DNA from: Hypoxylon rubiginosum
Lineage: Eukaryota; Ascomycota; Sordariomycetes; Xylariales; Hypoxylaceae
Length of the DNA stretch: 64,000 bases
Reading direction: 5' to 3'
NCBI GenBank assembly: GCA_902806565.1
Contig: CADCXA010000011.1
Span: 248,001 to 312,000, forward strand
Both the position numbers and the translations under genes were made by a program. Under the pieces are notes generated by a model. The model searched no databases, had not been told where the DNA came from, and saw nothing but the letters and a program-made list of their open reading frames with translations. This document shows, piece after piece, positions 22,280 to 51,147 of this stretch; position 1 is the stretch's first letter, and each line of letters starts with the position of its first letter.

Positions 22280-22365
22280 AAACCGCCAAAGTGACAAAAG
22301 TGCCAAGTCCGCCAAATCCGCCAAACCTGCCAAACCTGTAAAATGAGCTAAAATTATAATATATA
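22280..22365 (+). repeat. Left terminal inverted repeat, 86 bp
   Basis: Begins AAACCGCCAAAGTGACAAAA and matches the reverse complement of 50871-50956 at 81 of 86 positions; all five differences are transitions, three of them CpA/TpA-type. It contains a 9-bp-period series of (C/T)G(A/C)CAA(A/G) units starting at 22284, 22292, 22301, 22310, 22319 and 22328. Confidence 0.92.
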
Positions 22366-22531
22366 TAACTTTTATACTATATAAATATACTAAGTTCTTA
22401 ATAAATTAATATACTTTATTAATTTAAATTATAAAAAATATATAAATTAATAATAATATATAAAATATAATAAGAAAATAAAAATAAAAATTATTAATTA
22501 TAATAATAATTTAATTATAATATATTTTTAG

Positions 22532-22740
22532 TTTAATAATAATTTAATAATAATTTATTAATAGTTAAATAATAATTTAATAATAATTTAATAATAATTT
22601 AATAATAATTTAATAATAATTTAATAATAATTTAATAATAATTTAATAATAATTTAATAATAATTTAATAATAATTTAATAATAATTTAATAATAATTTA
22701 ATAATAATTTAATAATAATTTAATAATATTTTAATTATAA
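22532..22740 (+). repeat. 11-bp AT minisatellite near the left end
   Basis: About 15 or more almost perfect copies of AATAATAATTT in a row, with a less regular lead-in from 22532. The same motif in the same orientation forms an array near the right end. Confidence 0.9.
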
Positions 22741-25700
22741 TTTAATAATAATTAAATAATTATTATATTATAAAAAAAGTAAATAAATATATATTTTTTT
22801 AATATTAATTAATATATTTATAAATTATATATTAAGTTTTTTTTATTTTATAAGTTATTATTATAATTTTAATAATTAATTAAAATTTTAATTATATTAT
22901 ATTTTTTAATTTTATTTTTTATTATTTTATTTTATCGCTTTTTATTTAATTATAATATAATTAATATTAAAAATTTATATAAAATAAATTTTATATAATA
23001 ATATTAATTATTAAGTTTTTTATTTAATTTTAATAAAAATCCTTTAATTTTATAAAGAATTTTTTATTTATATATATAAATATAATTAATGTAAAATTAA
23101 ATATAATAAAAAAAAAATAAAAAACCTAAAAAATATAATTTAAAATATAATTTTATATATAATTAAATATTTAAAATTAATTTTTAAAAAAAAAATAAAG
23201 TTATAAAATATTTATATATTAAAAATATAATTAAATAATTTTTAGTTAAATATAATTATAAGAATTTATTACTTATTATTAAAATTTTTATAAAATTAAT
23301 TAATTTATAACTTTTTTTTATTTATAAAAAAGATTTATAAAAAGATATAATAATTTTAATTTAAAATAATATATTAAAAATATTATAAGTAACTATATAT
23401 AAATTATAAAATAAATATAATTTATATTTATAAATAATTATTAAAATTTATTATTTAATTTTTAACTTTTATTAATATATAAAAAAAGTTTATAAAAAAA
23501 CTTAATTATTTTAAAATTAAAATATAAAAATTATAGTTTTATATATTAGTTTATATATATTTAATATTTAATTATTTAATTAATTTATAATTATTTAATT
23601 TTTAGATATTTTTTTATATAAATAAATTAAATTAAATAAGTTTTTTTATATTAAGTTTTTATTATTATAATTTTAAAAAAGATTATTTAAATAAAAATAA
23701 ATACTTTTTATAATTATTAAAACTATAAAAAAAAAATATAATTAAAAAAAATTAAATATTAAATAACTATTTATAATTATTATAACTTATAGTTATATAA
23801 TTTTAAAATATATATTTTAATAAAAATAAATAATAAATATTAACTTATATATATAACTATAAAATAATATATTTATATTTATATATATATATAAAAAAAA
23901 ACTCCTTTTAATTTTTATTTTTATATGTTTTTATTTTTTTTTTTCTTTTTCTTTTTTTAATTATTATATTTTTTTATTTTTTTTTTTTATTTGTTTTTTC
24001 TTTATTTTTTATTATCTATTTATCTTATTTTTTTTAAATTTTTATTTATTTTTATTTTTATTATAACCTAATTAAATATATTTATTATAAGGTGTTTTAT
24101 TTATTATATAAACAAGTTTTTTAAGAATTTTAAAGTTTTAAATAATATATATTAAAATTAAAAATTTCTTTTTTTTATTATAAATATTATTATATATATA
24201 ATTAATATAATAATATACTTTTTTTTTAGCGATTTATTTTATAAAATAAAAATATATTTTTATATTATAATTTTTTCTTAAATAAGTTTAATAAAATTTA
24301 CTAATTATATTAATAAATAAAGTTTATTAAAAACTTTAAAATTTTTAATTTTTAGGAAAATATATATTATTTTTATTATTAAATTAAGGATAATAATAAT
24401 AAAAAAAATTTAACTAAATATTAAAAAATTAAATTAAAATGTTTATTAAATTTCTTTAAAATAATAAAAATATTATTTTATAAAAAAATATTTATATTAT
24501 ATTAAAAGTTATTAAATTAAATAGTTTAATATTTTTAATTTATTTATTAAAACTTAAATTAAAACTTAAATAATAATAATTAATATATATTATTTAATAT
24601 AAATAATTATTTTATTTAATTATAATTTTAATTAATATTAAATATTATTAACTTATAATAAATAACGTATATTATTTTAAAAAAATTTTTAAAAGATCTT
24701 TTAATTTTTTTTTTATTAAAACTAATTTTATTTTAATTATTTTATTTATTAAAAATACATTTTTTTTAAAAAAAAATTAAACTTTTTCCTTAATATAAAA
24801 TTTAAATAAGTTATAAAAACTTATTTTTTTTTAGTAGAAATTATTTTTATAATTAATATTATTTTTTAAAGCTTATAATTTAATAAATTTAATTTTAATG
24901 TTTATTAATTATAATTTAATAGTTAATAAGTTTAAATTTATATTATTTTTTTTATTTATTTATATTTTATAAAAAAGATTTTTCCTTAAAATTAAAAATT
25001 ATTATTATTTTAATTAAAAGCTTTAAAACGTTTAATTTAATATTAGATTTTATATAAATTTTAATTTTTTTATTAATAATATAAGTTAAAACGAAATAAA
25101 AGTAAAATAAAAAATAAAATAAAAATAAGATAAAAAGTGGGATAAAAAATGTTTATATTTTATTTTTATATTTTAATTTAATTATAATTAATTGTTTTTT
25201 ATAAAATTAAAAAAAAAATACTAATAATATTTTTTTAATATTTATTTAAATATATATTTATATAATTAATTATAATATACGCTTTTTTTTAACTAGTTTT
25301 TTATTTTATTTATTTTTTTTATAATAAAAATATATTATTATAATATATTTTAAAAATATTAATTAAAAAAATATAGGTTATATTTCTTTTTATTTATTAA
25401 ATTTTTTTATGTTTTATTTAATTTCCTTATTTATTATTTTATTTTTAAAAAGTTTTATATATTTTGTTTAATTTTAATTATTTTCTTTATTTTTAATTAA
25501 TATATATTATTATATTTTAATATTTATATAAGTTTTATTAAAATTTATTATTAATTAAAACTAGTTTTTTATTATTATATATTATTTATTTTTATAGTAA
25601 TTTTATTAAATAAATATATATAATTTTATTAAAATTTATATAAAATATAAAAAAGTTTATAAATAATTTAAAATAATTTTTAATTTTTATATAAATAAGT

Positions 25701-28700
25701 TTAATTATATATATTAACTATATTATTTTTTAAAACGTTATTAATTTTTAAAAGGAGATTAATTTAAATATATTTTATTAATTTAAATATATTTAAAAGT
25801 TTAAAATTAATATAAATAAATAGCCTGGTTAATAGTTATTAAAACCTAATAATCTTTTTTAATTATTTTTAACTTTAAATTAATAGTTTTTATATTTTTT
25901 TTATAAAATATAATTAGATTTTATTAAATATTATAAAACCTAGTTATATAATAATAAATTATTATAAACTAATATTTATAATATTAATATTATAAATAAG
26001 TAATATAACTTTTATAATATATTTTATTAATTTAATAATATTTTTTATTAATAATTTAACTTATTTTTATATTTTAAAAAAAAAGATTTATTTTATATTT
26101 AATTATTAATATTTAAAATAATAATAAATATTTAATTTATAATGATTTTTAATTTTCTTAATTTTTTTTTAAAAAAAATAATAATAGGTTTTTATTTTAT
26201 TATAAACTTAATGTTTTTATTAAATATTAATAGTAAAATATTATAAGTTAATATTAATATAAAAATAATTATAAACATGTTATTTATTTTTAATTGTTTT
26301 ATAATAATTATTATAAAAATTAAATACCGTTATTTAAATTTAGATTTTTATTATATATTTAATTAATAAAAGTATCTTTTTTTATTATTATTATAATAAT
26401 AATTAATATATATATTATTTAAATATTAAAATAAAATAATATAATATTAAAATATATTATTTTTTATTTAATATTAAATATAATTTTATTTTAAAAATAA
26501 AATATTATTATATATTTATATATAAATAACTAAAAATAATTAAAATCTTAGTTATTTTAAAAAACCTTTTTTAATTTATTTTTATAATTAGTAGTTAATG
26601 TTATATTTAATTTAATTTCTTTAAAATAATAATTTTAATTTATATATTATATATTTAAAATAATAATTTATTTTAAAAAAACTTATTAAATTATTAATAA
26701 GGTTTATATATTAAAATATAAAGTTTTAAATATATTTTTATTTATTATTATTTAAATAATAATAATATTAACTTTTATATTTTTAATTTTAATTAAAACT
26801 TATTATATAAACTTAATTAATTTTATATTATTTATTAATAAAAATTAATTATTATATTTATTAATATATAAAATATATTAAGATAAATAAAATAAAATTA
26901 AAAAATAATTTATTTATATTTAATTTAAAGTTATAAAAAAGTTTTAATTAAATTTAAAAAAATTAAAATAAATTATATTAAATATTAATTAGTTATATAA
27001 ATTAAAATTAACATATTTATTATTATTATTATTATTAATTTTATTTTTATTTACTAGCTTTTATAACTGTTTTTTTAATTTAATAATAATGGTTATTATA
27101 ATAAAAACTTAATAAATAAATTATATTTATAATAAAAAGCTGGAGAAAATAAAATTAAAAGAATTTTTAAAAACTAAAAAACTTATTAAAACCAAGGGAT
27201 TTTTTAAAGTTTAAAAAAAATAAAAAAACCTTTTAATATTATATAAAAAAAGTTAATAAACTTAGGTTAATTAAAAATTAATATTAGTTAAGTTATATAT
27301 TAATGTTATTTAAAAGAAAAAAAAAAAAACATTTAAACGTTATATAAAATTAAATACACGTTATATTTAAAAAGTTATAAAACGTAAAAAAGTTAAGAAA
27401 AAGATATAAATAAATTTAAAAAAGCTATATAATTTTTAAAAATAAATATAGGCGCATTTTTAATATTTTTTATTATTTATAAAAAATACTAAAAATATAT
27501 TTATATTTTTTAATAAAAAATTATTATAATATAACTTAAAAATAATATTTAATATATTATTTAATTTTTATTTAATGTTATAAATATTAAAACTATTTAT
27601 AAATACCTTATATTTTTATTAAATATTAATTTTTAGTAAATATTATATTTATTATAACTTTAATTTTAAAATTATTTTTAATTTATAATATTAAAACTTT
27701 TTTTTTTTTTATAATAAATTTATTTTATATTTTATATAAGTTTTTATTAGATTTTTATTCTAAGAAATTTATATAACTAATAAATACTATTAATATTAAA
27801 GTTATTAAATTAAAATTTAATTAATTTAATTTTATTATAAAACTAATAATTAATATTAAATATCCTGGTTATTTTAAATATATAAAACTATTTTTATTTT
27901 TTTTTACCTTAAATTATAATAATATTAATTATAACTTTATAATATATACTTATTATATTATAATTAAAAACATTTAACTTTATAATAATATATTTAATAA
28001 AAATATTTTATATTTTTTATATTTTAAAAACCTTTAAAATATTAATTTTATTTTAATTATCACGTTATTAATAAGTAATAATATTATTATTTAAAAAACT
28101 TATTATTTTTATATTTTTAATTATATAAGTTTATTTTTATATTTATTTTATATTCCTAGGTTTTAATTATAATAAATTTAAAGTTATATATTATAATATT
28201 TTTTTTTAATAATTAGTAGTTTTTTTATATTTTTAATATTTTTTTATTATATTTTATTATACCTTTAAATAACGTTTTTATTAACTTTTTTAATATATTA
28301 ATAAAAACTATTTTAACACTTTTTTTTTTACTATTTAATAAGCTATTATTATATTTATATTTATCTTTTTATTAATTAATTTAACTGGTTATATAATTAT
28401 TATTAATTATAATAAAACCTATTAAATTATATAATATAATACAAAAATAAAAACGGTATATTTAATATTAAAAAAAACTAAATTATAATTTAATATTAAT
28501 TATATATAATAATATATAAAAATATTAAATAATAATAAACTTATTAATAATTTAAATAATATATTTTTTTTATAGTGATATTTATTATATACTTAATTAT
28601 AAAAAACTTATTATTATTTTAAAAAAGTTAAATAATTAATATATTTTTATTTTTAAAATTATTAAATTAAATATAAAATATTTATATAATATATATATAA

Positions 28701-31700
28701 TATATTATAATTATATTTACTAGGATTTTTTAGATATTAAAGTTAAGTTTCTTTTTAATTATTTTATATAAAACATTTTTTATTTAAAAACCATATATAT
28801 TATTTTTATATTATATTTTTATTATTTAATATAAGTTTATAATAATAATAAAAACATATATAAAATTTAAAATAAATTTATATTAAAGTTTAAAAAAAGT
28901 TATAGTTAGTTTATAAATAAAAATAATAAACGTATATATAATTTAAATCCAGTTAATAATAATAATTATTTTATTTAAAATAATAAAATATTAATATTTA
29001 ATAAGTTTAAATTTAAGTTTAATAATTATTAAAAATATTTATATAATTTAAACATTTATAAGAAGCGTTTTTTTAGCTTGAAAAATAATAAGAATTATAA
29101 AAAATATAAATAAATTTAAAAATATAATAATAAATTTAATAACATTAATATTAAAATAAATATAAATTTTAATGTTATTTATTTTATATTTAATAATATT
29201 ATAAATAAATTTTAAAAACTAAATAAAAATGTTATTTTTCCTAGTTATAATACTTTAAAAAAAAAATATATAAAAAAAGATATATTTTTAAGGTTTTATT
29301 TTAATGAATTAAACTTAAAAAAATAAATTATATATATAACTTTTTATAAAATTTAAGTTTATTAACTAAAATATTATATATTAAATATAATTAAATAAAT
29401 AATTATTATATTAAAAAAGTTTTAAAATAATATATAATTAATATAAATATATATATAAAGTTATTTTTATATTAATTAATATAATTAATAAATATAATAA
29501 ATATAATAATTAATAACTTTTAGTTAGTTATTATTTATAATAATTATAACGTTTATTATTATAAAAAAAAAAGTTATTAATAAATAAACTAATAATAATA
29601 AAAACTATATAAATTTATATAAAAATTAAAATAAATTAATATAACTTTTAATATAAATAAGCTTTTAATAAATATATAAATAAATTAATTTATTATATTA
29701 ATATTTAGTTTATTTATATAAAAAATATTTATTTAAATTAAAAGTAAATATGTTTATATTTTTAATTTAATATTTAATTATTTATTATTTATTAAATAAT
29801 ATAAATAAATTATATCTTTTTTTTTTAAGCTTTTTAATAATAATTATTAAACTTTTATTTAACTATTATTATTAAGTTATTATTAACTTATTTTTTAACT
29901 TTTATTTAATTATTATTAATTTAACTTTTATATTTTTAATAACTTTATTATTTTTATTAACTATTAAATTATTTTTAAAGTTATTATTATTATTTTTAAT
30001 AATATTAGCCCCGGTTTTATTATTTTTAACTCCGGTTTTAATTTTTAATAAAAATAATAAACTTATAAAATAATAATTATTATTATTTTTAAACTTATTA
30101 TTATTTACTATAATATTTAATTGTTAAAATATTATTAATTAATTATTTAATTAAATAATAATTATATTAAACTTATTTTAATTATTTATTAACATATAAT
30201 TAATATTATTTATTAAATATAGTTTAATAATAAAATTTATTAATATTATTAATATTTAAAAATATAAAAAATTACTAGATTTAAACTTTTTTAATTTAGT
30301 AAAATTAATATTATAATTAATTTTAATTAAATTATTATTTAACGTTAATTAAAAGTTAATAATATAATTATTATAATTAATTTTATTTAAGTTATTATTT
30401 AATGTTAGTTAAATTTACGTTTAAAATATTAATATTTAATTAAACGTTAAAATTATTTTATTTTTATTATTTTTTTTTTCTTTTTAATTTTTAATTTTTT
30501 AAATATTTTAATATAATATAATAGTTATTATTTTTTAATTATTTAAATAACAGGTTTATTATTTTTTAAATGTTTAAATAAAATATTATTTATTTTAAAT
30601 ATATAAAACTTATTTAATAATAAAAAGTTTTTTTTTATTATATTATAAAAATTTTATTTATACGTTTAATTTATTAGTTAATTAATATAAAGTTAAAAAT
30701 ATAAATATTTTTATATTTTAATTTTAAATTAATTTATAATTAAGTTTATTATAATAACTTTAAATTTTTATAAATTATAATTAATTAATATTAGTAAATT
30801 AAATTAAATAATAATTAAATAATAATTAAATAATAATTAAATAATAGTTTAATAATAATTTAATAATAGTTTATTTAAATTTATAATAAAATTACATGTT
30901 ATATTAACTTTTTATAAAAATAAATTTATATAAAACATTATATTATTTAATTAATATTTATTTTACTAATATTTAAAAAGTATTTTATAAGTTTTTAATA
31001 ATAGATTTTTTAGTTAATATAAAAAAAATTAACGGTAAATTAATTATATTTATTAATTATTATTTAATTATAATTTATATATTTATTTTAATATAAAAGT
31101 TATATTAATGTTTTTAAAATTATAATTATTAATTAAAATCTTTTATATAATTATTAATATATTTACGTTTTTTTTAATTTTAAAAATAATATTATATATA
31201 ATATTAAATTTAAATATAGTTTTAATTATATATTTTATAATCTATTAGTTTTTAAATGTTAATTAAACTTTAATTTAACTTATATATTATTATTATATTA
31301 AAAAATTAAAATTTAATTATTAAAAAATATTATAATAATTAATATATTATTTGTTACTAAGTTATTATAATATTTATTAGTATTTTAACTTATAAATATA
31401 TTTAAAAATCTACGATTTTTTTTAATACGTTTTTTTTATTTTAAAAGATTAATTAAATATTATTAATTAATAGTAAAATTAATATTAACCGATTTATAAA
31501 AATTTAACTAATGAAATTTTTATTTAAAATAAATTTTATTTTTATTAGTTACAATTAAAAAACAATTAAACTAACGTTAAATAATAACTTAATAATAATT
31601 ATATAATAGTTTAATAATAATTTAAAAAATTTTAAATAGTTAAAATATTTTTTATATTTATTAATTTTATTAATATTTAATTTTGAAATATACAAGGATT

Positions 31701-34700
31701 AATATATATATTAAAAAAAAATATTATATTATTTTTATTATTATTATATATAGTTTTAATAAATAATTTAAATATTATTATTTTAATATATTAGAAATGT
31801 TTATAATATGTTTTTAAAATTATAAATTAAATATTAATATATTAAACTTTTATTAAATAAAAAAATATATTAAAAGTAAAAAATAATTTATATTAAAATA
31901 TAATAAATTTATAATTATTTTTAAATTATATTTAAATTATTAATAAATTATTATTAAGTTATTATTTAACTATTATTAAGCTATTTTTACTAAATATTAT
32001 TATAAATAATAATTTTATTTTTTATATTATTTATTTATATTATATTATATATTTATTATTATATATATTTATTAATTATAAATACTGGTTTTAAATACTG
32101 TTATTTTATTTATTTTAAAACCATTTATTATTTTTAAATATTGTTTTTTTTTTACTATTAAATTAATAGTTTTGTTTTTAGTTTTTATATTACTATATAA
32201 CATTATTATTTATATATAACTAAAAAATAATTTATTTATTTAATTAAAATTATTATTTAATAATAACTAACTTTACTTATTTTAATTAATTAAATAATTA
32301 TAAATTTATAATAAAAATATATATAAAACTAATTTACTAAATTTTTTAAATATTATAAATTTTATTTAAATTTTTATATATATTTAACTTATTATATATA
32401 TATATTATTTTTAAATTCTAAATTTATTTTTTATATATTTATTTAATAATTATACTAGTAATTTATTATTATATTATTATATTACTTTTTTTAATAAATT
32501 TATATTAACGTTTATAATTATATATTAATATTATTTTAATTATTTTAATTTAAAATTAATATTAAGTTTTAATATTTTTAATAATAATAATATTTATTAT
32601 ATTATAATATATTATATTATATATATAATAACTAAAAACATTTAAACTTTTAATAAAAAAAAAATATAAATAAATTTTAATAAAATGTTTTTTTTTTTAA
32701 AATTATAACGCCGGTTTTTATAGATATATTTAAAAATAATATTTTATTTATAAGTTATTATTATTTTTATATTTTAAGTTATAAATAAAAAAACTATATA
32801 TATTAATATTATAATTTTATATAAATAATATCCTTTAATTATTATTTATAGTTTTATTAATTAACTTAAAAATATAAAATATTAATATTAAAAAATTAAT
32901 TAATTAATAATAATATAATAATATAAAATAATAAATTAATATAAGTTTATTTAAAATTTAAAAATATAATATTTAATTTAATATAATAGTAATTATTTAT
33001 AAATTATTATTATTTATAGAAAAGTTTTTAATAATATTTAAGTTTTATTACTTTTATATATTAATTAATATTATATTTATTAAAAATAAAAATTATTTTT
33101 AGATTTTTTTAAAAATAATAATAATTATTATTATTATTATTTAACGTTTTTAAGCTTTATTAATAAGCTTAATTAATAATAAACTAGCTTTTTACTTATA
33201 AATATATATATTATATATTAATAATTAATTAATTATAATAATTTTATTAAATTTTAAAATGGTTTTTAAAATATTAATAATATTAATTTTACTTAATTTT
33301 AACTTTATTTTAAAATTAAAGTTTACTTTTATTATTAATATATTATTATTTTTTATAATAAAATGCTTTTAAGTTTAAAAAATAAATTTATTTATTTAAT
33401 AATTAATAAATATTTTTTAAATTAAAAGTAAGCTGGAATTATTATTATTAATTAATTTAAGAATTTTTTTTTACGTTGGTTTTTTTAATAAAATATATAT
33501 TATATTAAAGTAACTATAACTTTTATTAATATAATTAATAGTTTTATTTAAATTAAATAAAACCTTTTAATAAATATTAATAAAAATATATATATTAAAT
33601 TATTATATAATATATTATTTTACTTTTAAATTTAAAAGTTAATAATTAAAATTAGTTTAATATAAATAATTAATTTAATAAAAGTAATTAACTTAAAAAT
33701 AATTAATTTAAAAATAATTAATTTAAAAATAACTAGTTTAAAAAAGTTAATATTTTTAATATAAATATAATAAAAAATAAAAAATAATAAACTTTTTATA
33801 ACTTATAAATATATAATATAAATATTATAATATAAACCTTATATATATTATTAATTAAAAAACTTTTAATTTTTAATTAAAATATATAAAAACTAATTAA
33901 TATATTTTATATTTTTATAAAATTATTTAATAATTAAAATTAAATGATGGTTTTTTTTTTCTTTTTAAAATGTTTTATAAATATTATAACTTAGTTATTA
34001 TTAATTATTTACTGTTTATTATTATATAATTTAATAATAATATATTTTTAAAAAAAATAATTTAAATATATATAGTATTTATTTAATTTAATATCTATAT
34101 AGTTTATTTTTAATTATATTAAATAATTTTTTTAATAAATAATAAATAGATTTATATTATTTAAATATTTAAATAAATATTTTTTTATTTTTATTAATAT
34201 AATATTAAATAATAAATATATAGATGTTAAGTTAAAATAAAAACGGTAATAAGTTTTATAATATTTATTATATTTTTATCTTTTTTTTATAACCATTATT
34301 AATATTTTAATAAAAATATTTATTATAAATAAAATATTTTACTTTATTATTAAAATTATTATATTAATAAATTTATTTATAATTTATATTTTATATTTTA
34401 TTATAAAATTTAGTTTATATATAATTAGTTATAGTTAAAATATTAAATTTATTATTATTAAGTTTATTATTAAAACTTATATTAAAAAAAAAAAAAAAAA
34501 GGTAAAAAAATATAAAAAAAATATAAAATAATATTAAAATATAAAAATAATAAATTATAATTAAATAATTATAATAATAAAAAATTAAATAAACTAATTA
34601 AATATTAAAATATTTTAAAAATTAAACATTTAAATTAATATTATTATATATATAATTACTAACTTATATGTTTTTATATATTTTTAATAATTTAATTAAA

Positions 34701-37680: not shown

Positions 37681-38933
37681 AAAAATAATATTAATAAAAT
37701 ATTAGTTATTATTTATAATGTTATTATATAATTAATAACTGTTAATAAAATATAACTTCTCTTTTTTACCTAATAAATAATATTAAGGATTATTATATAT
37801 AAGTTTTTATATTTTTTCTTTTTTATTAAAATAAAAATATTAATATAATAAATATAAAAAAAAATAATATTATTTTATATTTATTACTATATAATATAAA
37901 AACATATATCTATTTTATTAAAAATAAAGTTAAATATAGTAATATTTAACTTAAGTTTATTAATATTTAATATATTTTATAATTAATTATTAAATATTTT
38001 TATTAAATTAATATATATTATTAAATTAATAATAATTTAGTTTTCTTTAATTTAATTAATAAAACATTTATTAAAACCGTTACTTTTTAATTTTATAAAA
38101 AATTAAATAAGTAAAACTTTTTTATTATATATAGTTTTAATAAATATATATATAAATATATTATTTTTATTAAATTTTAATTATAATATATATATTATAA
38201 CTTTATATATTAATAATTTTAAAATAATATTAAATATTAATATAAAAAGTTTTTATAAATTAGATTATATTTTCTTAATAATTTTATTAAAAAAAGAAAA
38301 GATACGTTTAAATATAAATAAATTTAAAACTTTTTTAATTAAATTTTAATTTATATAAATATAGTTATTAAATATTATATTTTAATAAATTTTTTAAATA
38401 ACAGCTTTTTTTATTATAATATTTATTTTTATGTTTTTACCTTATTTTTCTTATTAATTACTTATTTAATTTAAGTTATTATTTAATTTAAATCTTTTAA
38501 ATATAAATTCTTTAACTAATATTATTTCTTTAAATTTAATTGTTTTTATTTTATAATATATTTTTAGTAATAACCTTTTAAATTAATTATATATTTATTT
38601 AGTTTTTATAATAATGTTTAAAGTTATTATTAATATATTATAATTATTTTTATTAAAAAGTTTATTATTAAAAATAACATTATTAAATTTAAGTTTTAGT
38701 TATTAAAAAAAAATATTAAATGTTTTATTTATATTAAACTTTTATGTTTTTTTTATATATTTAGTTTATTTTATAATAAATTTAAAAGTTATAATATATT
38801 AAAAAAATAAAATATATTAAAAAAATAAAAATTTAATATTTTAAATTTTAACTATATTATTAAATAATATAAAAAGAAGTTTATTATTAAATAATAAAAT
38901 AAAGGGGTAATTATTAAATAATAAAATAGAAAG

Positions 38934-39035
38934 TTTTTTATTAAACTTTAAATTAAATATATTATATTTAAATAAAATAAAAATTTTTTTATTAAACTTT
39001 AAATTAAATATATTATATTTAAATAAAATAAATAA
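38934..39035 (+). repeat. 51-bp direct repeat, two nearly identical copies
   Basis: ATTAAACTTTAAATTAAATA and the following 26 bases occur at 38940 and again at 38991 without change over about 46 bases. This is a younger duplication than the other arrays, since the copies show little divergence. Confidence 0.75.
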
Positions 39036-39481
39036 CCTTTTTTTAAATAATAATAAAATAATAATTAATTTTTAATTTAATTTAAGTAATAATAATAAAA
39101 ATAGTATTATTAAAAGAAAACTTATTAATATAAAACTGGTTTTAAAAAAAATGTTATTTTTAAATTATATATTAAATGTTTTTATATTTAAAAAAAAAAT
39201 TAAATTAAATTAATATTTTAAAATAATATTAAATAACGTAATATAAATATTTTAAATGTTTAAAATATTATAGATTTAATAAAATAAAATATATAATCTA
39301 ATTAAATAAATTAAAGTAAAATGTTATAATATATTTTATATATATTAATATATATTAATATAATAATATTTAATTTCTAGTTTATATATTAAATTGTTTA
39401 TATTTTATAAAATTCTTTTAATTTTTAAAATTAAGGTTTTATTATTAATTTAATTAATTAAAATTTTTTTATAAAATATAA

Positions 39482-39680
39482 GTTAATTTTATTTAAATTA
39501 TATAATTTTTTATTAAAAAATAAACCAGTTTTTTTTAATTTTTTTATAATAAATAAGTTAACTTTATTTAAGTTATATAATTTTTTAATAAAAAATAAAT
39601 TAAGTTTTTTTAATATATTATATAGTTTTTTTAAAGAAAATAAATTACTTTTATTTTTTAAATTATATGGTTTTTTAAAC
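39482..39680 (+). repeat. About 75-bp tandem repeat, two clear copies and a diverged third
   Basis: GTTAATTTTATTTAAATTAT at 39482 and GTTAACTTTATTTAAGTTAT at 39557 start copies that stay alignable over their length; a looser third copy runs to about 39680. The C/T and A/G differences between copies are RIP-like. Confidence 0.6.
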
Positions 39681-42600
39681 GGTAGATTTTTTTTTTACTA
39701 TAAAAAAGTTATAATTTAAAAAGATTTTATAGCTATTAAAAAAAGGTATTTTTATAAGTATAATTAAAGTAAAATATATATTTATAATTTTTTATATATT
39801 AAAATTATAAAGTGTTAAGAAACGTATAAATTCTTATATTTTAAACTAAAAATATAGTTTTTAAAAATAAGAATTAAATGTTTTTATAATAATAAAAAAT
39901 ATAATAAAAAATTTAAAAAATTAAGTTAATTAATAAAATAAATATGGCAGTTTATTTTATATTAATAATATAAAATAAAATAAAAAAAATAATAGTTAAT
40001 TAAAATATTATTAATATTAAAAAATTAAAAAAATATTTAAAAAAATCTTATAAAAGTTAAAAAAGGTTAATAAATATAATAAGATTTAATAAAAATAAAG
40101 TTATATAATAAGTTAATAATATAATTAAATAATAAGGTTTAAATGTAAAATATTTAATAATTATATAATATTTTTTATTAGTATAATTATAAAAAAAAAA
40201 AAGAAATACCTTAAAGTTAAAAATAAAAGTAATTAACGTTTATTAAAATTATAACTTTATTAAAAATAAAAACTAAATAATTAAACTTTTATTAGTATAT
40301 TTTTTTTTTTATTATAATATTAATTAATTAAAAATATTTATATTATTTTTTATATTAAAACTAAGAAAGGTAAAATTAATTAATTTAAAAATATATAAAG
40401 TTATAAATATATTAATATATTTATTTTTTTTATAAACTTTTTTAATAATATTATATATTAATAAAAGTTTTATTTAAAAGCGATGGTTTTATTTTAAATA
40501 TATATTTTTATATTATAATAATATATTTATAATTATTAAATGTTTTTTAAATTTTTCACTTTTTATATAATTATAAAATAATTAGTTGATTTTTTTTTTT
40601 TTTAAAAAATAATTTATTTTATAATAATATTTAATATATTATATTATATATATAAAATTTTATATATAGTAATATTTTTTAAATTATGTTTATATAATTA
40701 ATTAAGTTTTAAATGTTAATATATATTTTAAAAAAAAAAAAAATTTATAGATTATAAGATTTTAATAATAAAAAACAAGTGATTTTTATATTTTTTAAGT
40801 TATAAAAAAATATTTATTATATTTTTAGTAATAAAAATAATTAATTAAATTAAAATAAATATATAAAAAAATATAGTTTTATTAAGTTATATTTATATAT
40901 TTATTTTAAGTTAAATTATTAAATAAATATATAAAATATAATAAAGGCTTTTTTTTTTTTTAATTAATATTATAAATCTTTTCCTTAAATATTTTATTTT
41001 AAATTAAACTTATATTTTTTTTATTTTATTTTTATAATAAATATTAATAATTAATTAAATTTTATTATTATAATAAATAATTATTAAATTTTATTATAAA
41101 AATTTATAAAATATATTAACTTATTTATTATATAATAAAATAATAAAATTTTAAATATATTTTATATTATAAATAGTTAAATATAAGTTTTAAACGTGTA
41201 AATATAAACTATAAATAACTAAATATAAAATATAAACATATAACTATAAAATATAAATATATATAATATTTATTTAAAATTATAATTAATTAATTAATTA
41301 ACTTAAAGTTATAAACTATTATATTAAAATTATAAATTATTATATAATAAATAAATTTTAAGTTTTAAATAATTATATTATAAATAAAATTATAATATTA
41401 AATAAATAAATAAATATATATTTTAAAAAGTTAAAAATATATTTAGTAACATTGTAAATAAAATAATATTTTTTATTAATAATAACTAGGTTTTAATATA
41501 TAATATAAATAAGAATATAAATAATATAATATATTTAATAAATAATAAAATAAATATATTTATTATTAATTTATTACTTTTTTAAATATTAAAAATTAAT
41601 ATTTTAATTAAAGATTTTTTATAAATAATATTAATAATTAATATTTTAATTAATAAGTGTATATATATATATTATATTTATTAATATTAAAAGTATTTAT
41701 TATAAAAATAAAATTTAATTATTTTTTTAAGTTATTAAACCTAGATTTTTATAATATATTTTTTATTAAATATAAAAAGCTTATTTAAATATATAAAATA
41801 ATTATTTTAAGTTTAAAATATATAACTTAATTTATAAATTTTAGAAAAAAAAAAAAAAAAAAAAGATGTTATTAAAGATATTTATAAGTATAAAAACTAT
41901 AAAATAAATAAGAGGATTTAAATAAATTAAATAATATTTGTTTTATAGTTATTATAAATAGTTTTATTTTAATATTATTTATATTATTTATTATATTATT
42001 TTATATAGTTTTATATATTATTTTTTATATTATTTCTTATATATTTATATATAGTTTTTAACGTGGTTTTTTAGTTATTTTTATTATTTTAATATTAAGT
42101 AAATTATATTTTAAATGTTTAAGTGGGTTAAATAAATTTATATTTTTTTAATAAAAAATATAATAAAAGAAGTTTAAAAAATAAAATAAAATAAAAATAA
42201 AGTTATAATATTTTAAATAATTAACTGTATAATTTATTTATATAAATATAAATTAAAAGTTAATTTTTAATAAACTTTTATTAATAATTTTATAATTAAG
42301 TTTTAGTTTTAATTAGTTATTTATTTTTAGTTTTTTTATATTTAATTTTTTTATTTTTAATTATTTTATTTTTAATTTTGTTATTTTTATTATATTTATT
42401 ATTATTATTTTTATTATTACCGTTTTTATTATTATTTTTATTATATTTAACTTAAATAAATATTATATAAATTAATTTAGATTTTTAATTTTTAAAATTA
42501 ATTAATATTTATTAATATAGTTATTTTTTTTTATTTTAAATTAAAAAATTATATAATAATTTATTATTATAATATAAATTTTATATAAATAAAATTAATG

Positions 42601-43124
42601 GTTTTATAAAACTAGTATATTTTATATTATTATATAATAAATAAAATAATTTATTAAATTAAAAAAAAAATATATTTTAATTATTAATATTTAAAAGTTT
42701 AATAAATATATATAAATATAAACTAGTAATTTTTTTTTATATTATATTTTTATATATAAGTAAAATAATTATATTAAAAAAAAACTTAATATTTAACGTT
42801 ATTAAATGTTATATTTATAATTTAAAGTTAAGTTATATTATAAATTATTATTAGTTTAATTAATTAATATAAAAAAACCTTTATATTAAATCTAGTTTTT
42901 TAATATAATAAAAATTTTATATTTAATTATAAAACAGTTATTTATAATTAAATTAATAGGTTTAATAAACGGTTAAATAGTTTTATATTTTTAAGTGAAT
43001 TTTTTATAAAACTATAAATAATTAATTAATATAAGTGTTTTAAAAAAAGATTTTTTAATAAATAAATTTTTAATAAAAATATTTAATTTTATATTTTATT
43101 TTTTTGTTAATTATAAATAAATAA

Positions 43125-43295
43125 ATGTTTTTTTTTTTTTTCTTTTTTTTTTCTTTTTTATTTTTTTTTTAATTTTTTTTTTACCTTTTTCTTTACTTTT
43201 TTTTTTATTTTCTTTTTTATTTCTTTTTTTCTTTTTTTTTTTTATTTTTTTCTTTATTTTTTTTTTTACCTTTTTTTTTACTTTTTTTATTTATT
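43125..43295 (+). repeat. Long pyrimidine tract (T-rich with scattered C)
   Basis: About 170 bases that are almost purely T with occasional C and A on the plus strand, so strongly strand-asymmetric compared with the A/T-balanced sequence around it. Confidence 0.75.
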
Positions 43296-46289
43296 TATAA
43301 ATTTATTAATAATATAAAACTAATAATAAAATAGGTTTTTTTTTTTAATAAAAATATAATATAAATAATAACTTTAATATAAAAGATTTTTAATGTTTTT
43401 ACTTATTTTAAAAAGTTTATTTTATTTTTAATAAAAACAAGTTTAAAATTAATAACTATATAATAATTTATTTTAAAATTTCCTGTTTTTTTTTATATAT
43501 TATTATATAAACTTTAAAAAATTTTTTTTTTATATTTATTATTTTAAACTAAAATATTATATTTTTATTATAAAAATCACTAAATATTATTAATTTATAA
43601 TTAAAAAGTTTTATTATATAAAAATGTTTTTTAATTTAAATTTAAAAATGTTAAATAAACTAAAAATACCTAGTTTTTTAAAAATAAAAAAGTAATTTAA
43701 AATTAAATTTATAATAAATATTATTATAAAACTAATAATATATAAATTAATTATTATTCTTAAAAAAAATTTAAATTTAATATTTTATTAAAATTTATAT
43801 ATTAGTTAAATAAAAAGTTATATAAATTATATAAATTTATTATTAATTATTTTATAAATTAATATATATAATATTTTTTTACCGGTTTTTATAATAAAAA
43901 AAATATAAAAAATAATTTTTATTTATAAAGTTATTTAACTTTAAAACTAGTTATATATTAAATGTTTTATTTTTTTATATATAATTATTTTTTCTTTTAA
44001 AATATTAAATATATATATAGTATTTTTATTAATAATATTAAAATTCTTAAAATAATTATATTATAATATATTTTTATTTAATATACTTTTAATTAATATA
44101 TTTTTAATTAATATATTTTAAATTATTTTACCTTTTTATAAGTTAATAAAAAGTTATATAAATATATTTAAACTTATTATATAAATTATATTATTTATAT
44201 TATTTATTATATAAAAAATGGTAAATATATTAAGTTAAATATTAAATATAATATATTATTTATATTTTTTTTTATTAATTAATAACTATAATATAAAATT
44301 ATAAATAATAATATAAATATATTAAATAAAAGTTTTTATTAAAAAATTTATAGATGTTTTTATAAAAATAATTTAATTAATATTTATATTTATTAAATAT
44401 TATTTATTAATTATTTTTTAAATAATAATCTTAATATAAAAACGTTATAAAAAATAAAAATATTAAAGTTATTATAAATAAAAATATAATATAAAAAAGT
44501 TAATAATTAATTAAAAAAATTTAATAAAAATAATAATTATCCCTTTTTATTTTTTTTTATATTTTTCTATAAATAATCTTTTATTATAATTAAAAAATAA
44601 CTAGGTTACTTATATTATATAATAATTTATTAAACCGTACGTTTTTATTTATAAAATTATTATATTAAAAATAAAAAGTTATATATATTTAAAATTAAAA
44701 AAATAAAATTAAAAAACTGGTAATTAATAATTTTATTTATTTTAATTAGTTATATTTTATTAATTATTTAAATAAGAATTTTTTTTTAAATATAAAATTA
44801 TTATATAATATTTTATTTTTTTAATAAACTAATAATAATATATATAACGTATTAATATTTAAATAATTTTTAAAATAAATTAAATATAAATTAAAAAATA
44901 TATAAAAAATTAATATATAAAAGTTAATATATATAATTATAATTAATTAAAAATATATAACTTAATTAAATAAATTTAAAAATAATATTAAAAAACCTAT
45001 AAAAAAGGTTTTTTATTATTAAAAAAAAATAATAATTTAATTTAAACTATAATAAAGATTTTATTTTTATTATAATAAAAAATATATCCTTATTTTAAGC
45101 CGTTAAAAAAGATTTTATTTATATTATAATAAAAAGTAAATTTTTAGTTTATAATTTTTTAAATAAAAAGTTTTTAATAGTTTATATTAAAATAAGTTAT
45201 TTATTATAATTAAAAATATAAATAAACGCCTTAATATTAAATATACGTTAAAAAAAAATTTTTTAATATAATTAAAAATAGTTTATTATATTAATTTATT
45301 AAAACCTAAGAAATTTCTTTTTATTATATAATAATAATTAATAAAAATATTTAATATATTATTTCTTAAATTTTAAAGTTTTATTAAAAACTTTAAATAT
45401 AATCTTTAAAAATTATAAAATAGTAAAATAATAATAAAAATCCATTATTTTAATTTTTTAGAAAACTAATAATAAATAAATTTATTTAAATTAATAAAAG
45501 AATTTAAATTAATTTATAATAATATTAAAAATCATTTTACGTATTTAATTATAAAGTTAATATTAATAAAAAACTTATTAATATAAAATAAAAACTTGTT
45601 TATATTTTTTAATTAGTTTTCTAAATTAATTAAACCTATAAATTTAACATATATTAAAAATGTTTTTATTTTATTTTATAGATATTAAAACTAATTATTT
45701 AAAAGTATTAACTTATTAATTAAACTTAATAAATTATTAAAAAAATTTCTTATAATTAATTTTATACGTTTAATTATTTATTTTTTTAAGTTATTTAATA
45801 AAATATATTTTACTATATTATTAATATTAATATAAAGGTTTTTTAATATTAAAAACTTTATTAAAAAAGTATTTTATAAATATTATATATTATTTAAAAT
45901 TTAAAGTAAAATCTAATAATTATTATTTATATAATTATTTATTATATTTATTATAATAATTTAATTAATATAAAAAAAGAAAATAAAATTAATTAAAACT
46001 TAAAACTTTTTTAAAGTTTTATATTTATAAAAAATAAAAAGTGGTTTATAAAAATAAATAAATAATAATATATAATATATAAAATAAATTAAAATAAATA
46101 AGGTTTTTTAATAAAATAATTAATAAATTAATTTATATATAATTTAATATTATTAATATATAATTAATATTTTATATTTAAAATATTTAAAGTTTAAATA
46201 TTAATATATTATTTTTTATTACTTTTTAGTTATATAAAAATTAAATTATTTAATAATATTAATAAAACCATTTATCTTAAAATAAAATC

Positions 46290-47110
46290 TATTAAAAACT
46301 TTAATAAAAATATAATATTTATATTAACATATAAATCTTTTAATAATATTTATTTAAATATAATTATAGTTTTAATAAATTTAAAAAAATTATTATTTAA
46401 TAATATTACCAAAATTAGTTAATTAAAGTTTAAGTTTTTTAAAAACTTTAATAAAAATATAATATTTATATGGTTTTATAAACTTTTAAATTATATTTAA
46501 ATAAAAATATAATATTTATATTAACTTATAAACTTTTAACTAATATTTAAATAAATATAATTTTATTAAATTTTAATTTATTTTTATTTAATAATATTAA
46601 AAAGATTAATTATTTAAAAATATAATTTTTTAGAAATTATAATAAGAATATAATGTTTTTATTAATTAAAAAACTTTAAAATAATATTTAATTAAATATA
46701 ATTTAGGTTAAATTAAGGATATTTTTATTTAATAATACCAGGAAAATTAATTTTTTAAAAATATAATTTTTTAAAAATTATAATAAAATTATAATATTTA
46801 TATTAATTAAAAAACCTTAAAATAATATTTAATTAAATGTAATTTTAATTAATAAAAAAAGATTTTTATTTATTAATATAAAAAAAATTAATTATTTAAA
46901 ATTATAATTTTTTAAAAACTTTATAAAAATTATTATATTTATATTATTTTATAAACCTTTTATTAATATTTAATTTAATATAATTTTATTAAGTTTAAAA
47001 AAATTATTATTTAATAATATTAAAAAAATTAGTTATTTTATTAAAAAACTATTAAAAAACTTTAATAAAAATATAATATTTATATAAATATACGAATTTT
47101 TTAATGGTAT
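46290..47110 (+). repeat. About 141-bp satellite array, six units plus a partial one
   Basis: The anchor ATAAAAATATAATATTTAT recurs with changes at 46304, 46451, 46501 (partial unit), 46642, 46782, 46923 and 47065. Full units are 140-147 bp. Between anchors, an (A)TTATTATTTAATAATATTA block is also shared. Confidence 0.8.
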
Positions 47111-50100
47111 TTAAACTAATAAAAGTTTAATAAAAATAAAATTAATATTAATAATATTTAAATAAATATATTTATATTTTTTAAAATAAAATTACTTTAC
47201 TTTAAAATTATTAATTATTTAATATAAAAATATTTTAATATTAATTTAATATTACGTTTTTTTTAATATAAATTAATATAATAAAATATAATATAATATA
47301 ATTTATATTTTTTTTATTAAAATTTATTTAAAAAATAATATAAAATAAAAAGTTATTAATTTAACTAAATATAAGTAATATAAAAATAATATAATTAAAT
47401 TTTATTATAATTATAAATTTAAGTTAAATATATTAATAAATATAAAAAAAAATCTAATATATAAATTAATATATATAATTATAAAATAACTTATTTTTAA
47501 AAGTATAATTTAATTTAAATATATTTAAATATATTATTAAAATTATTTATAAACTATAAGTTTATAAGTATTTTAATTATTTTATAGTTAGTTATTTTAA
47601 AGTTATATTTTAAAACCGTAACTTTTATAGTTTAATTTATAAGGTTATATTATTTATTATAATTTTATAGTTATTTTTTTTACCTTAAATTTAGTTTTAA
47701 AACATATTTAATATAATATTTTTATTTAATATTAATTTTTATTTGGTTATAATAAACCGTAATATATATTTAAAAATTATAAATTATTAATATAACTAAA
47801 AAAAAATTCGCTATAATAAAAAGTGGAGATTTTTTTTTAATTTTAAAACTAAATTAACTATAAAATATAAATAAGTATTAAAAATTTTATTTTATTAAAT
47901 TTAAAATTTATATAAATATTAATATTTATTTTTATAAAATTATATAATATAATATTAATAAATTTAATAATTTACTTATAAATATAATTAACTAATATTT
48001 TAAAATAATTATTATACTAAGATTTTAACCTTAAATAATTTATATAAATTATAAAATTAAAATTTCTTTTATAGTTTAAATATAATATTAATTAATTATA
48101 TAAACCAGGCTTTAAATAACTATATAATTTACAAATAAAATAAAAATAAAATATTTATAAAATATATATATTTTAAAGTTATATAAGTTTTATATAAGTT
48201 AATATAATATAAAAATTAAATAATAATAACTTTTTTTTTAAATTAATATAACTAATTATTAAATTATAAATAAATTAATATTTATATTATTAAATATTAA
48301 TATTAATATTATATTATTAGTAATATTTTAAAAGTTTATATAATTTAAATTTATTTAAAAAATATTAGTTTTATATTTAAATTATAATATATATTATTTT
48401 TAAAAACTTATTATAATAAAAAATAACTTAATATATTTATTTATAAAATATTTATATTATTAAATAATAAAAAAATAAAATTACTAGTTATATTAATAAA
48501 TTTTAAATAAATTTAAATAATATAAAAATAAAAAATTATATTGTAAATTTAATTTTTTATTTTTTATTATTAAAATTAATATATTAATTAAAAAAGTTAA
48601 TATATAAATATAATTTTAATAGTTTTTTAGTTTTAAAAATATAATAAATTTATAATAAATAATTAATATAATATTTATTAAAACTTATTAAAAATAAAAA
48701 TTATTTATATTTTAATAAATATATTAATTTAAAAAATTATTTAAAATAATATAAAAAAAATAAAAAAAAACTAATATTAATATTTAATAAGTTTTTATAT
48801 AATAAAATAATATAATATATAACTTAATTAAATGAAATAAAAAAATAAATAAAAACAAAATAAATATAATTATATAATTATTTATTAAATATTTTAAAAA
48901 TAAAAAAATAAATTTAAAAAATATTAAAAATTTATATATTATTTTTTATAATAATAATAAATTATTTATTTCTTAAATATATATTTATAATATAAAACCG
49001 CTAGGGCGGTAAAAATAATTATTTTAATTATTAATTATTTTTTATTTAAATAAATATTTATTTAATTTATTAGGTATTATTTTATTATTTAAAATATTAA
49101 TACTTAAATATATATTTAAATAAATAAATATTAAATAAATAAATATTAAATAATAAAAATTATTATTTTTATTTATTAAAAGTTTTAATTTTATTAGTTT
49201 TTTAAAACTTATATAATTTTTTTTAGTTTATTATAATAAAAATTCTTTTTTATATTATATTTAATATTATAATAAATAAAAATAATTTAGCTTTTATAAA
49301 TTTCCTTAAAAATATATTATATATAAAATTATAATTAAATTATTTACTTTAAATTATAAAAAGAAAATCTTATTTTAAATATATTTTAAATATTTTATAA
49401 ATTAAATTATAAAAATATATATAATAATAATTTAATTGTTTTTATAAGTTTTTTTTAATAAGTTTATATTTAATATATAAAGTTTAAAATATTATTTAAA
49501 TTATTATTAGTTTGTTTTTTATAATAATTTATATTAATTTTTTTTAAAATTAAAATTTCTTAAATATTAATTATTATAATATTAATATATAAGTTTAAAA
49601 GTTTTTTATATTTATTAAAACTAAGGTTTTATTATAAAAACCTAGCTTTTATTATTTAAAAAATCATAGCTTTTAAAATAATAATATTAAATATTTATAT
49701 TATTAAAAATATTAAAAATAAATATAATAAATTTCTTTATTTAATAAGCTTTTTTATTTGTTATTTTTATATATATAAAAATGTTTATAATTATTAAATT
49801 TATTACTTTTTATATAATAACGTTTTAGTTTTTTTTATTATTTAAATAGTTTTATAATAATATTATTATTTTATAATATTAATATTTTTATTAATAAAAT
49901 ATTTTATAATAATATTTTATATAATATTTAATATTTTTTTTTATCTAGTATTTATTTAAATAAAAAATAAATTAAATATAAATAATGTTTATTTATAATA
50001 ATTATTTTATTTATATTTATAAGTTTATATTTTAAAGTTTTAAGTTTTTATAATTAGTTATTTTTAAATAAATTTTTAAAGTTATAATAAAAATTTTAAT

Positions 50101-50560
50101 TTATTTTAACTAATAAATTATATAAATTATAAAAAAAAGTTAATTAATTTTTTAATATATAATTTTTAAATTTAATTATATATATATATAAAATTTATTA
50201 TTTAAATAATAAAATTATAAATTAAAAAGTTATTATATTATTTTAATATTAAAATTTTATATATAAATAAATTTAACTTATATTTTTTTTAATATTAATA
50301 AATTAAGTTTTTTATTTAAATTATAAAAATTATATATTTTTTATTTAAACTTTAAAAATAATAAATAAGTTTATAATTTTCTTTAAATAATAAAAACTTA
50401 AAAAATTTTAATATATAATAATTAAAATATTAAAATTAAAATAAGTAAAAAAATTAATATTTAATATATAATAAATTATATTATTAAAATTACTAACTTA
50501 ATTAAAAACTTTAAAATTTTTTAATATAATATTTTATATATTTTATAATATAAAAACCTT

Positions 50561-50722
50561 AATTTAATTATAATTTAAATATAATTTAATAATAATTTAA
50601 TTATAATTTAATAATAATTTAATTATAATTTAATAATAACTTAATTATAACTTAATAATAATTTAATTATAATTTAATTATAATTTAATAATAACTTAAT
50701 AATAATTTTATAATAATTTAAA
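50561..50722 (+). repeat. 11-bp AT minisatellite near the right end
   Basis: AATAATAATTT and AATTATAATTT units alternate, giving a 22-bp higher-order pattern, with some copies keeping a C (AACTT). The orientation is the same as in the array near the left end, so the two are direct, not inverted. Confidence 0.85.
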
Positions 50723-50870
50723 TATTATTATAAATATTTTATAAATATAATAAATTTAATTTTAAATTTAAATATAATTATAATTAACTGTTATAAGTTT
50801 TTTATAATTTAAATTAATAAAATATATTAATTTATTAAAAACCTAGTGTATTTATATAGTATAGGAATTA

Positions 50871-50956
50871 TATATATTATAGTTTTAGCTTATTTTGTAG
50901 GTTTGGCAGGTTTGGCGGATTTGGCGAACTTGGCACTTTTGTCACTTTGGCGGTTT
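50871..50956 (-). repeat. Right terminal inverted repeat, 86 bp
   Basis: Reverse complement of the left end with five transitions in 86 bases. Read on the plus strand it ends CACTTTGGCGGTTT. Normal composition resumes directly after it, about 190 bp before the next gene. Confidence 0.92.
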
Positions 50957-51147
50957 AGCGTAAATTTACAGCGGAGTCTTATCAGAGCAAGTCAAAAGAG
51001 GAGCTTCTTTTATGGTATCGTAATAAATACCTATATATGGATAATAAAAGGACAGTTCCAAATACATAGAATAATTTTCAATAAATACGTCTTAAGCATA
51101 TGTTCACTGTTCCACCCGGTCTAGTAAGGGAGAGAGTGTAGATTACG

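What the first reader, a model, noticed from the sequence alone, without database searches (positions are those of the whole stretch)
22280..50956. A 28.7-kb AT-rich block bounded exactly by long inverted repeats: a giant, RIP-killed mobile element
Seen directly: 22280-22365 and 50871-50956 are inverted copies, 81 of 86 matching with only transitions between them, and both coincide with the edges of an AT-rich block that has no ORFs of 60 codons or more. Two unrelated events would not be expected to place matching ends exactly at both borders. The size exceeds ordinary fungal TIR transposons (2-8 kb). Either this is an undescribed giant TIR element class, or a small transposon that became a landing site for others and was then mutated as a whole. 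The cargo, if any, has been erased by RIP.
Basis: partly seen in the sequence, partly recalled or inferred. Interest (0 to 1): 0.9.

Follow-up and report, generated by a model that had tools for sequence, protein, structure and literature searches.

The report
Giant RIP-killed fungal transposon family
A 28.7-kb mobile DNA element with inverted ends has jumped as one piece to dozens of places in a Hypoxylon-like fungus, and the fungus then mutated the copies almost beyond recognition; what enzyme moved it is still unknown.

Summary
The block is one mobile element, window 22260-50976 (28,717 bp), flanked by an exact 5-bp target-site duplication, TCTTA. The own genome gives 76 matches to the end; they form 29 facing pairs, 20 of them spaced 28.0-29.5 kb. 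Of 11 pairs with both termini readable, 10 have an exact 5-bp duplication and the other matches 4 of 5. Seven full copies align end to end with 2,145-4,663 transitions but only 3-84 transversions per pair. One copy (contig C26) keeps a largely un-mutated stretch of about 4.3 kb (49% GC) with two intact predicted genes. The other copies differ from it almost only by C>T/G>A. This shows RIP-like mutation and refutes the nested-small-transposon and isochore readings. The two genes found no relatives. Ten target sites show no motif, which fits a DDE-type integrase/transposase better than a Starship; 5 bp does not fit canonical Polintons (6 bp). The mobilising enzyme was not identified. Host: probably Hypoxylaceae (one protein).

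The parts
22260..50976 (+). Giant TIR element, 28,717 bp, RIP-saturated copy; oriented with its A-end at the left
   Evidence: Termini shared by other copies and 5-bp target-site duplication; collinear with 6 other full copies
22255..22259 (.). Target-site duplication, left copy (TCTTA)
   Evidence: 10 of 11 testable pairs show an exact 5-bp duplication
50977..50981 (.). Target-site duplication, right copy (TCTTA)
22260..22445 (+). A-end terminal inverted repeat: GACCGTTGGCGGTTTACAAAAAACCGCC..., with 9-bp GCCAAA-type tandem repeats at about 22288-22338
   Evidence: against the B-end 20 of the first 30, 85 of the first 100 and 162 of the first 190 bases are identical
50791..50976 (-). B-end terminal inverted repeat: CTCCGCTGTAAATTTACGCTAAACCGCC... 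(read inward), same 9-bp repeats at about 50899-50948
   Evidence: in 11 of 11 pairs with both termini readable one end is type A and the other type B
22437..22764 (+). Subterminal 11-bp tandem array (about 30 copies, AATAATAATTT as it stands)
50560..50786 (+). Subterminal 11-bp tandem array at the other end (about 21 copies)
32387..36607 (.). Counterpart of the stretch that is largely un-mutated (48.6% GC) in the C26 copy (L046 4800-9100)
35193..36281 (-). RIP-destroyed counterpart of gene 1 (378 aa, intact in the C26 copy at L046 5128-6264); 21 stops in frame here and shorter than the C26 gene (1,089 against 1,137 bp)
33093..34480 (-). RIP-mutated counterpart of gene 2 (three predicted exons, 440 aa, intact in the C26 copy at L046 6977-7301, 7348-7871, 7921-8394)
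   Evidence: introns are predicted from GT..AG and frame, not shown by RNA
46220..47199 (+). Internal tandem repeats with mostly 141-bp spacing, inside the element
   Evidence: families D4-D6

Best explanation
A family of giant terminal-inverted-repeat DNA elements, each about 28.7 kb, that moved as whole units. SHOWN: shared termini; 5-bp target duplications at unrelated sequences; full-length pairs dominating; a star-like history in which each copy read carries almost only private transversions; and near-saturating one-way C:G to T:A mutation. INFERRED: a DDE-type transposase or integrase encoded in the RIP-saturated part binds the 9-bp repeats of the two unlike ends, cuts or copies the element out and joins it to staggered cuts 5 bp apart at near-random sites. 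INFERRED: new copies came repeatedly from one or a few sources that escaped RIP, and each copy was then detected as a repeat in sexual crosses and mutated by the host's RIP machinery, older copies more heavily. INFERRED with less confidence: amplification was replicative, because 27 of 29 pairs are 28 kb or longer and only two are short.
For: 76 end matches against 0 for the control pattern; 29 facing pairs: 20 at 28.0-29.5 kb, 7 at 34.3-45.0 kb (later insertions assumed, not read), 1 at 11.3 kb and 1 at 1.24 kb. 12 of the 29 pairs had both flanks in hand; 11 were readable, and 10 of these have an exact 5-bp TSD. Seven full copies: 2,145-4,663 transitions against 3-84 transversions per pair. 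Against the C26 stretch, C:G sites are mutated in CpA 95%, CpG 89%, CpT 82%, CpC 78% of cases, while only 14 of 11,712 A/T cells go the other way. Private transversions 51, 21, 16, 14, 4, 1, 1 with 9 shared sites; they fall as residual GC rises (Spearman -0.88, n=7). No target motif in 10 sites.
Against: No transposase was identified: a RIP-tolerant comparison of 15 recalled transposon domain consensuses and 5 real proteins gave nothing convincing over shuffled controls; but it has little power for distant relatives (phi29 against PRD1 polymerase about equals the highest shuffle). The outermost 30 bases of the two ends agree at only 20 positions. 18 of the 76 ends are unpaired. Only 7 of the 20 equal-length copies were read in full. 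Residual C:G sites coincide between copies more than 4-base context predicts, in 15 of 15 pairs, so fully independent mutation of each copy is not shown. No empty site in another strain could be examined. One TSD matches only 4 of 5.
Confidence: 0.82

Rival explanations
1. A Polinton/Maverick-like self-synthesising, virus-derived element: protein-primed DNA polymerase B copies the linear element and an rve-type integrase inserts it.
For: Size (15-25 kb, up to 40 kb), TIRs, and the scarcity of short forms fit (size and enzymes from PMC6431247 section 10).
Against: Target duplication is 5 bp, whereas 6 bp is characteristic (PMC10045372 passages). No DNA_pol_B_2 match in the genome at E 0.1 or less, though RIPped copies would be invisible to that search. 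phi29 and PRD1 polymerases give no signal in the RIP-tolerant comparison, which is weak. The two readable genes match no Pfam family and no PHROG convincingly.
Confidence: 0.2
2. A Starship: a tyrosine-recombinase (captain, DUF3435) element that happens to have TIRs.
For: Giant size; 18 of 20 high-confidence A. fumigatus Starships have TIRs and 19 of 20 direct repeats of 2-12 bp (PMC12153272 passages). A captain gene exists elsewhere in this genome (C10). Its fragment scored above 8 of 8 shuffles against the element (20.2 and 19.3 against maxima of 17.8 and 17.9).
Against: Starship direct repeats typically reflect part of a target site; here 10 duplications are 10 different sequences and no flanking column exceeds 0.32 bits. 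With 60 shuffles, 3 reach the captain's score, host DNA gives 18.2, and the best place is 16.8-17.0 kb, not an end.
Confidence: 0.05
3. An ordinary cut-and-paste transposon of a known superfamily with 5-bp duplications (hAT5, Transib, Ginger2) that has grown to 28.7 kb by capturing genes.
For: 5-bp duplications occur in hAT5 (PMC12730594 passages), Ginger2 (4 or 5 bp; PMC10045372 passages) and Transib (recalled).
Against: Recalled hAT, gypsy/copia integrase and other DDE consensuses give no convincing signal (no Transib query was run); termini GACCG/CTCCG fit none of the termini I recall for these groups; short forms are 2 of 29 pairs.
Confidence: 0.3
4. A small transposon that served as a landing site for others, mutated as a whole.
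For: Seven pairs of 34-45 kb suggest later insertions in some copies.
Against: Seven full copies at different sites are collinear over 28.5-28.9 kb, and a 1.2-kb interior piece recurs at 88-100% identity in 28 places, the window included.
Confidence: 0.01
5. A centromere or natural AT-rich isochore, or an assembly artefact.
For: AT-rich and without long ORFs.
Against: Sharp borders with target duplications, 29 facing pairs including five on one contig (C29), and a counterpart of about 49% GC in the C26 copy.
Confidence: 0.01

Closest known systems
Polinton/Maverick elements
   Same: Tens of kb, TIRs, multi-gene
   Different: 5-bp instead of 6-bp target duplication; about 190-bp TIR with unlike outermost 22 bp; no polymerase, integrase or capsid detected (with weak tests, capsid untested)
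Starships (captain tyrosine-recombinase elements of filamentous ascomycetes)
   Same: Giant, fungal, flanked by short direct repeats, often with TIRs
   Different: No conserved target site here; 29 paired places in one genome; no convincing captain signal in the element
hAT5 / Ginger2 / Transib DNA transposons
   Same: 5-bp target duplication, TIRs
   Different: About 28.7 kb instead of a few kb (typical size recalled); different termini; no transposase similarity detected
RIP-mutated transposons of Neurospora and other ascomycetes (recalled)
   Same: One-way C:G to T:A change in repeats, CpA most affected
   Different: Extreme saturation: 84-88% of C:G pairs mutated per copy in the measured stretch, 5.8-8.9% GC in six of seven copies; all contexts hit, not only CpA

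Membership tests
TIR DNA transposon (class II, DDE-type) | Terminal inverted repeats shared by the copies | tested here: met
TIR DNA transposon (class II, DDE-type) | Fixed-length target-site duplication at varied sequences | tested here: met
   10 of 11 exact 5 bp, 1 of 11 is 4 of 5; no motif in 10 sites
TIR DNA transposon (class II, DDE-type) | DDE transposase/integrase gene inside the element | tested here: inconclusive
   RIP-tolerant search negative but weak for distant relatives
Starship | Captain (DUF3435 tyrosine recombinase) at the 5' end | tested here: inconclusive
   Own-genome captain (L057) against the element: 20.2, 3 of 60 shuffles as high, above 8 of 8 shuffles; best place not at an end
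Starship | Direct repeats belong to a conserved target site | tested here: not met
   10 different duplications, at most 0.32 bits per column
Polinton/Maverick | 6-bp target-site duplication | tested here: not met
   5 bp; 6 bp stated in PMC10045372 passages
Polinton/Maverick | Protein-primed DNA polymerase B and rve integrase | tested here: inconclusive
   No PF03175 match in the genome; two rve matches, C34 (over cut-off) and C37 (under it), on contigs without element pairs; RIPped copies cannot be read by these searches; phi29/PRD1 comparison negative but weak
Polinton/Maverick | Capsid, packaging ATPase, protease genes | not tested
   No query for these was run; the two readable genes match nothing
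hAT5 | hAT transposase | tested here: inconclusive
   Recalled hAT core and dimerisation consensus not above shuffle maxima; the one hAT match in the genome, C10:182445-182693 in an 842-aa open frame, lies on a contig without element pairs
Ginger2 | 4-5 bp duplication and rve-type integrase | tested here: inconclusive
   5 bp met; recalled gypsy/copia integrase consensus: gypsy below shuffle maximum, copia 18.9 against 18.8
Transib | 5-bp duplication and CAC-type termini (recalled) | tested here: not met
   5 bp met, but termini are GACCG and CTCCG
RIP target | Directional C to T / G to A change in repeated DNA, strongest at CpA | tested here: met
RIP target | Mutation occurs in the sexual cycle by the RID/DIM-2 pathway (recalled) | not testable with these tools
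   Needs crosses

The most novel reading that the evidence does not exclude
An undescribed superfamily of giant (28.7 kb) TIR elements of ascomycetes, neither Starship nor Polinton, that spreads as complete multi-gene units with 5-bp duplications, possibly by replicative copying, and is normally invisible because RIP reduces its copies to 6-9% GC.
Probability: 0.4. Interest if true: 0.88.

Novelty: new variant of a known kind. Interest (0 to 1): 0.74.

Why it matters
Giant mobile elements in filamentous ascomycetes are discussed mainly as Starships (my impression from the listings). Here is a multi-copy giant element with TIRs and 5-bp duplications at unrelated sites. It shows that RIP can hide such elements as anonymous AT-rich blocks that annotation cannot name. 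The largely un-mutated stretch in one copy gives a built-in ruler of RIP: which C:G pairs were hit, in which context, and how mutation load grows with copy age. It also poses a testable puzzle: how a source stays un-mutated and productive in a host with such severe RIP.

Tried and rejected
Recalled consensus sequences of 15 transposon domains, and real phi29 and PRD1 polymerases, MuA, MuB and the genome's own captain fragment, were compared with the element after reducing query and target to purine/pyrimidine codons (so RIP does not matter). Positive controls worked: gene 1 scored 289 against shuffles of at most 24, a 180-aa part of gene 2 scored 118 against at most 17. No other query exceeded its controls convincingly. 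In one search, piggyBac scored 22.2 against a maximum of 21.4 in 10 shuffles and copia integrase 18.9 against 18.8; the other 13 stayed below their shuffle maxima. The captain scored 20.2, above 8 of 8 shuffles, but 3 of 60 shuffles reached it. These were rejected as chance. A distant pair (phi29 against PRD1 polymerase) gave 20.8 and 20.9 against shuffle maxima of 20.4 and 21.6, so negatives do not exclude distant relatives. A purine/pyrimidine dicodon scan suggested coding stretches at 7.6-8.4, 15.2-17.2, 21.1-21.5 and 24.2-25.2 kb of the C26 copy (scores 17.4-21.5, reversed-sequence maximum 16.5), but segments overlapping the two known genes scored only 9.7-13.9, so the map is tentative. 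C31:903912-932500 was suspected of an un-mutated patch because it was missing; a 1.1-kb sample was fully mutated (6.6% GC), and one search had scored only 39 of 2,437 candidates. The centromere/isochore and nested-insertion readings were rejected as given above. Ten paper searches (two returned nothing) showed no such element in the titles and abstract beginnings listed; the papers listed were otherwise not read. Read: outline with abstract and passages of PMC12730594, passages of PMC10045372, passages and section 10 of PMC6431247, passages of PMC12153272.
Full report
OBSERVATION. The block is 5.8% GC between 50.0% and 50.8% GC flanks, and its only ORF of 45 aa or more lying wholly inside has 46 aa. 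Exact borders, from ends shared among copies, are 22260-50976, 28,717 bp. TCTTA stands on both sides.

THE FAMILY IN THE SAME GENOME. The window is contig C11:248001-312000 of a 48.27-Mb, 70-contig assembly. A BLAST of the left end gave 40 matches (40 of 55 candidates scored); a RIP-tolerant 34-base pattern with up to 2 mismatches gave 76, against 0 for the pattern read backwards. Parsed in order along the contigs, these make 29 facing pairs and 18 unpaired ends. At least some unpaired ends lie within 28 kb of a contig end and point off it (for example C30:1553695 of 1,574,012 and C34:994912 of 1,010,543). Twenty pairs are 28.0-29.5 kb apart, seven 34.3-45.0 kb, one 11.3 kb and one 1.24 kb; no adjacent pair in any other orientation has the 28-29.5 kb spacing. 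The pairs span 847 kb, 1.75% of the assembly.

TERMINI AND TARGETS. The two ends differ in their outermost 22 bases: type A is GACCGTTGGCGGTTTACAAAA..., type B is CTCCGCTGTAAATTTACGCT.... In the window 20 of the first 30 bases agree, but 162 of the first 190. They share AAACCGCCAAAGTGACAAAAGTGCCAAGT... with 9-bp GCCAAA-type repeats. Twelve of the 29 pairs had both flanks in hand; one end of one pair could not be read. In all 11 readable pairs one end is A and the other B; 10 of the 11 have an exact 5-bp duplication, each of different sequence, and one matches 4 of 5. The ten target sites show no motif. Inside each terminal repeat lies an 11-bp tandem array, about 30 and 21 copies in the window.

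ONE UNIT, NOT A NEST. Six further full copies were read, so 7 of the 20 of that size; lengths are 28,544-28,908 bp. Aligned, they are collinear, and pairs differ by 2,145-4,663 transitions but only 3-84 transversions. A 1.2-kb interior piece recurs at 88-100% in 28 places, the window included (39 of 2,437 candidates scored). This rules out a small transposon enlarged by chance insertions.

RIP. The C26 copy is 17% GC overall because about 4.3 kb (its oriented 10.2-14.5 kb) is 48.6% GC; the rest of it is 11.6%. That stretch grades into the AT-rich DNA at both edges and aligns with the AT-rich copies with few gaps. At the 1,936 C:G sites of its core the six other copies keep 11.5-16.1% of the pairs; mutated fractions by context are CpA 95.3%, CpG 88.5%, CpT 82.3%, CpC 77.7%, and only 14 of 11,712 A/T cells read C or G elsewhere. 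The change is thus one-way, strongest at CpA and near saturation: RIP or a very similar process (RIP biology is established knowledge, not tested here). Against full independence: residual pairs coincide between copies more than expected even given 4-base context in 15 of 15 comparisons (e.g. 89 against 53.5 for W and C9), so position effects beyond that context, or some shared mutation history, remain. The outermost 90 bases stay at 40-49% GC in five of the seven copies and at 21-33% in C9 and C26, while bases 91-190 are at 3-11%.

HISTORY. Away from gaps, private transversions are W 51, C9 21, C29b 16, C21 14, C29a 4, C29c 1, C26 1, with 9 shared sites. A star with unequal rays suggests that the copies left a nearly unchanging source at different times. 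Residual GC rises as private transversions fall (Spearman -0.88, n=7), as expected if RIP accumulates over crosses. On this measure the window copy is the oldest of the seven.

CONTENT. The un-mutated stretch holds gene 1 (378 aa, one open frame) and gene 2 (predicted three exons, introns of 46 and 49 bp, 440 aa), both intact and on the same strand. In the six other copies the place of gene 1 has 19-57 stops when read from its start; two of them also have lengths not divisible by three. Neither gene has a relative at E of 0.01 or less among the 7,997 and 7,990 candidates scored, in Pfam up to E 10 or convincingly in PHROGs (best E 0.39). In solved structures gene 1 found none up to E 1, and the first 222 residues of gene 2 found one chance-level match (E 0.2). 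The protein database does hold many fungal proteins: the neighbouring pectate lyase found Hypoxylon texense at 90% and H. rubiginosum at 85%, so the host is probably a Hypoxylaceae (one protein) and the negatives carry some weight. No second un-mutated copy of this stretch is among the 16 matches.

WHAT MOVED IT. Fixed 5-bp duplications at unrelated sites plus TIRs are the signature of DDE-type strand transfer (established knowledge). The enzyme itself was not found. A comparison that ignores RIP by reducing codons to purine/pyrimidine was validated on gene 1 (289 against at most 24 for shuffles), then run with 15 recalled transposon domain consensuses and with phi29 and PRD1 polymerases, MuA, MuB and the genome's own captain. 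The highest values relative to controls were piggyBac (22.2 against 21.4), copia integrase (18.9 against 18.8) and the captain (20.2; above 8 of 8 shuffles, reached by 3 of 60); I treat all three as chance. The power for distant relatives is low, so this is weak evidence. The genome has no DNA_pol_B_2 match, captain matches in two places (an open one on C10, a fragment with seven stops on C60), two rve matches (one under its cut-off), one hAT and four DDE_1 matches, all on contigs without element pairs.

COMPARISON. Starship membership fails on the conserved-target feature and is inconclusive on the captain; Polinton membership fails on the 6-bp duplication and is inconclusive on the enzymes. 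Five-base duplications occur in hAT5 and Ginger2 and Transib (recalled), but nothing ties the element to them. Working description: a giant TIR element family of unknown transposase, killed by RIP. The scarcity of short forms (2 of 29 pairs) is unusual for cut-and-paste families (recalled) and hints at replicative copying; this is inference.

LIMITS. One genome, 7 full copies, no strain comparison, no expression data, and most of the coding content unreadable.

Noticed in passing
G000 C34:434531-434803 and C37:866664-866960: Two rve-integrase matches (the second under the family cut-off) lie in long open frames (1,315 and 2,302 aa) without stops, in a genome where this repeated element is mutated to under 10% GC.
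   Followed up: no
G000 C10:182445-182693: A single hAT dimerisation domain in an intact 842-aa open frame; possibly a lone or domesticated transposase.
   Followed up: no
G000 C10:594225-595539 (L057) and C60:62082-62459: A DUF3435 Starship captain gene with open frames, and a second captain fragment with seven stops.
   Followed up: partly
L014 (G000 C9:713131): A B-end whose terminal repeat is broken off after about 100 bases by unrelated sequence, perhaps a later insertion.
   Followed up: partly
L011 (G000 C6:215966-217209): A 1.24-kb pair of ends with 0-1.5% GC between them, lying in AT-rich DNA: apparently an internally deleted, fully mutated derivative.
   Followed up: partly
window 46220-47199: Tandem repeats with mostly 141-bp spacing inside the element, of unknown role.
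   Followed up: no
first 90 bases of each end, e.g. window 22260-22349: The outermost 90 bases stay at 40-49% GC in five of seven copies while bases 91-190 are at 3-11%: RIP seems to spare the very edges of the repeat in most copies.
   Followed up: partly
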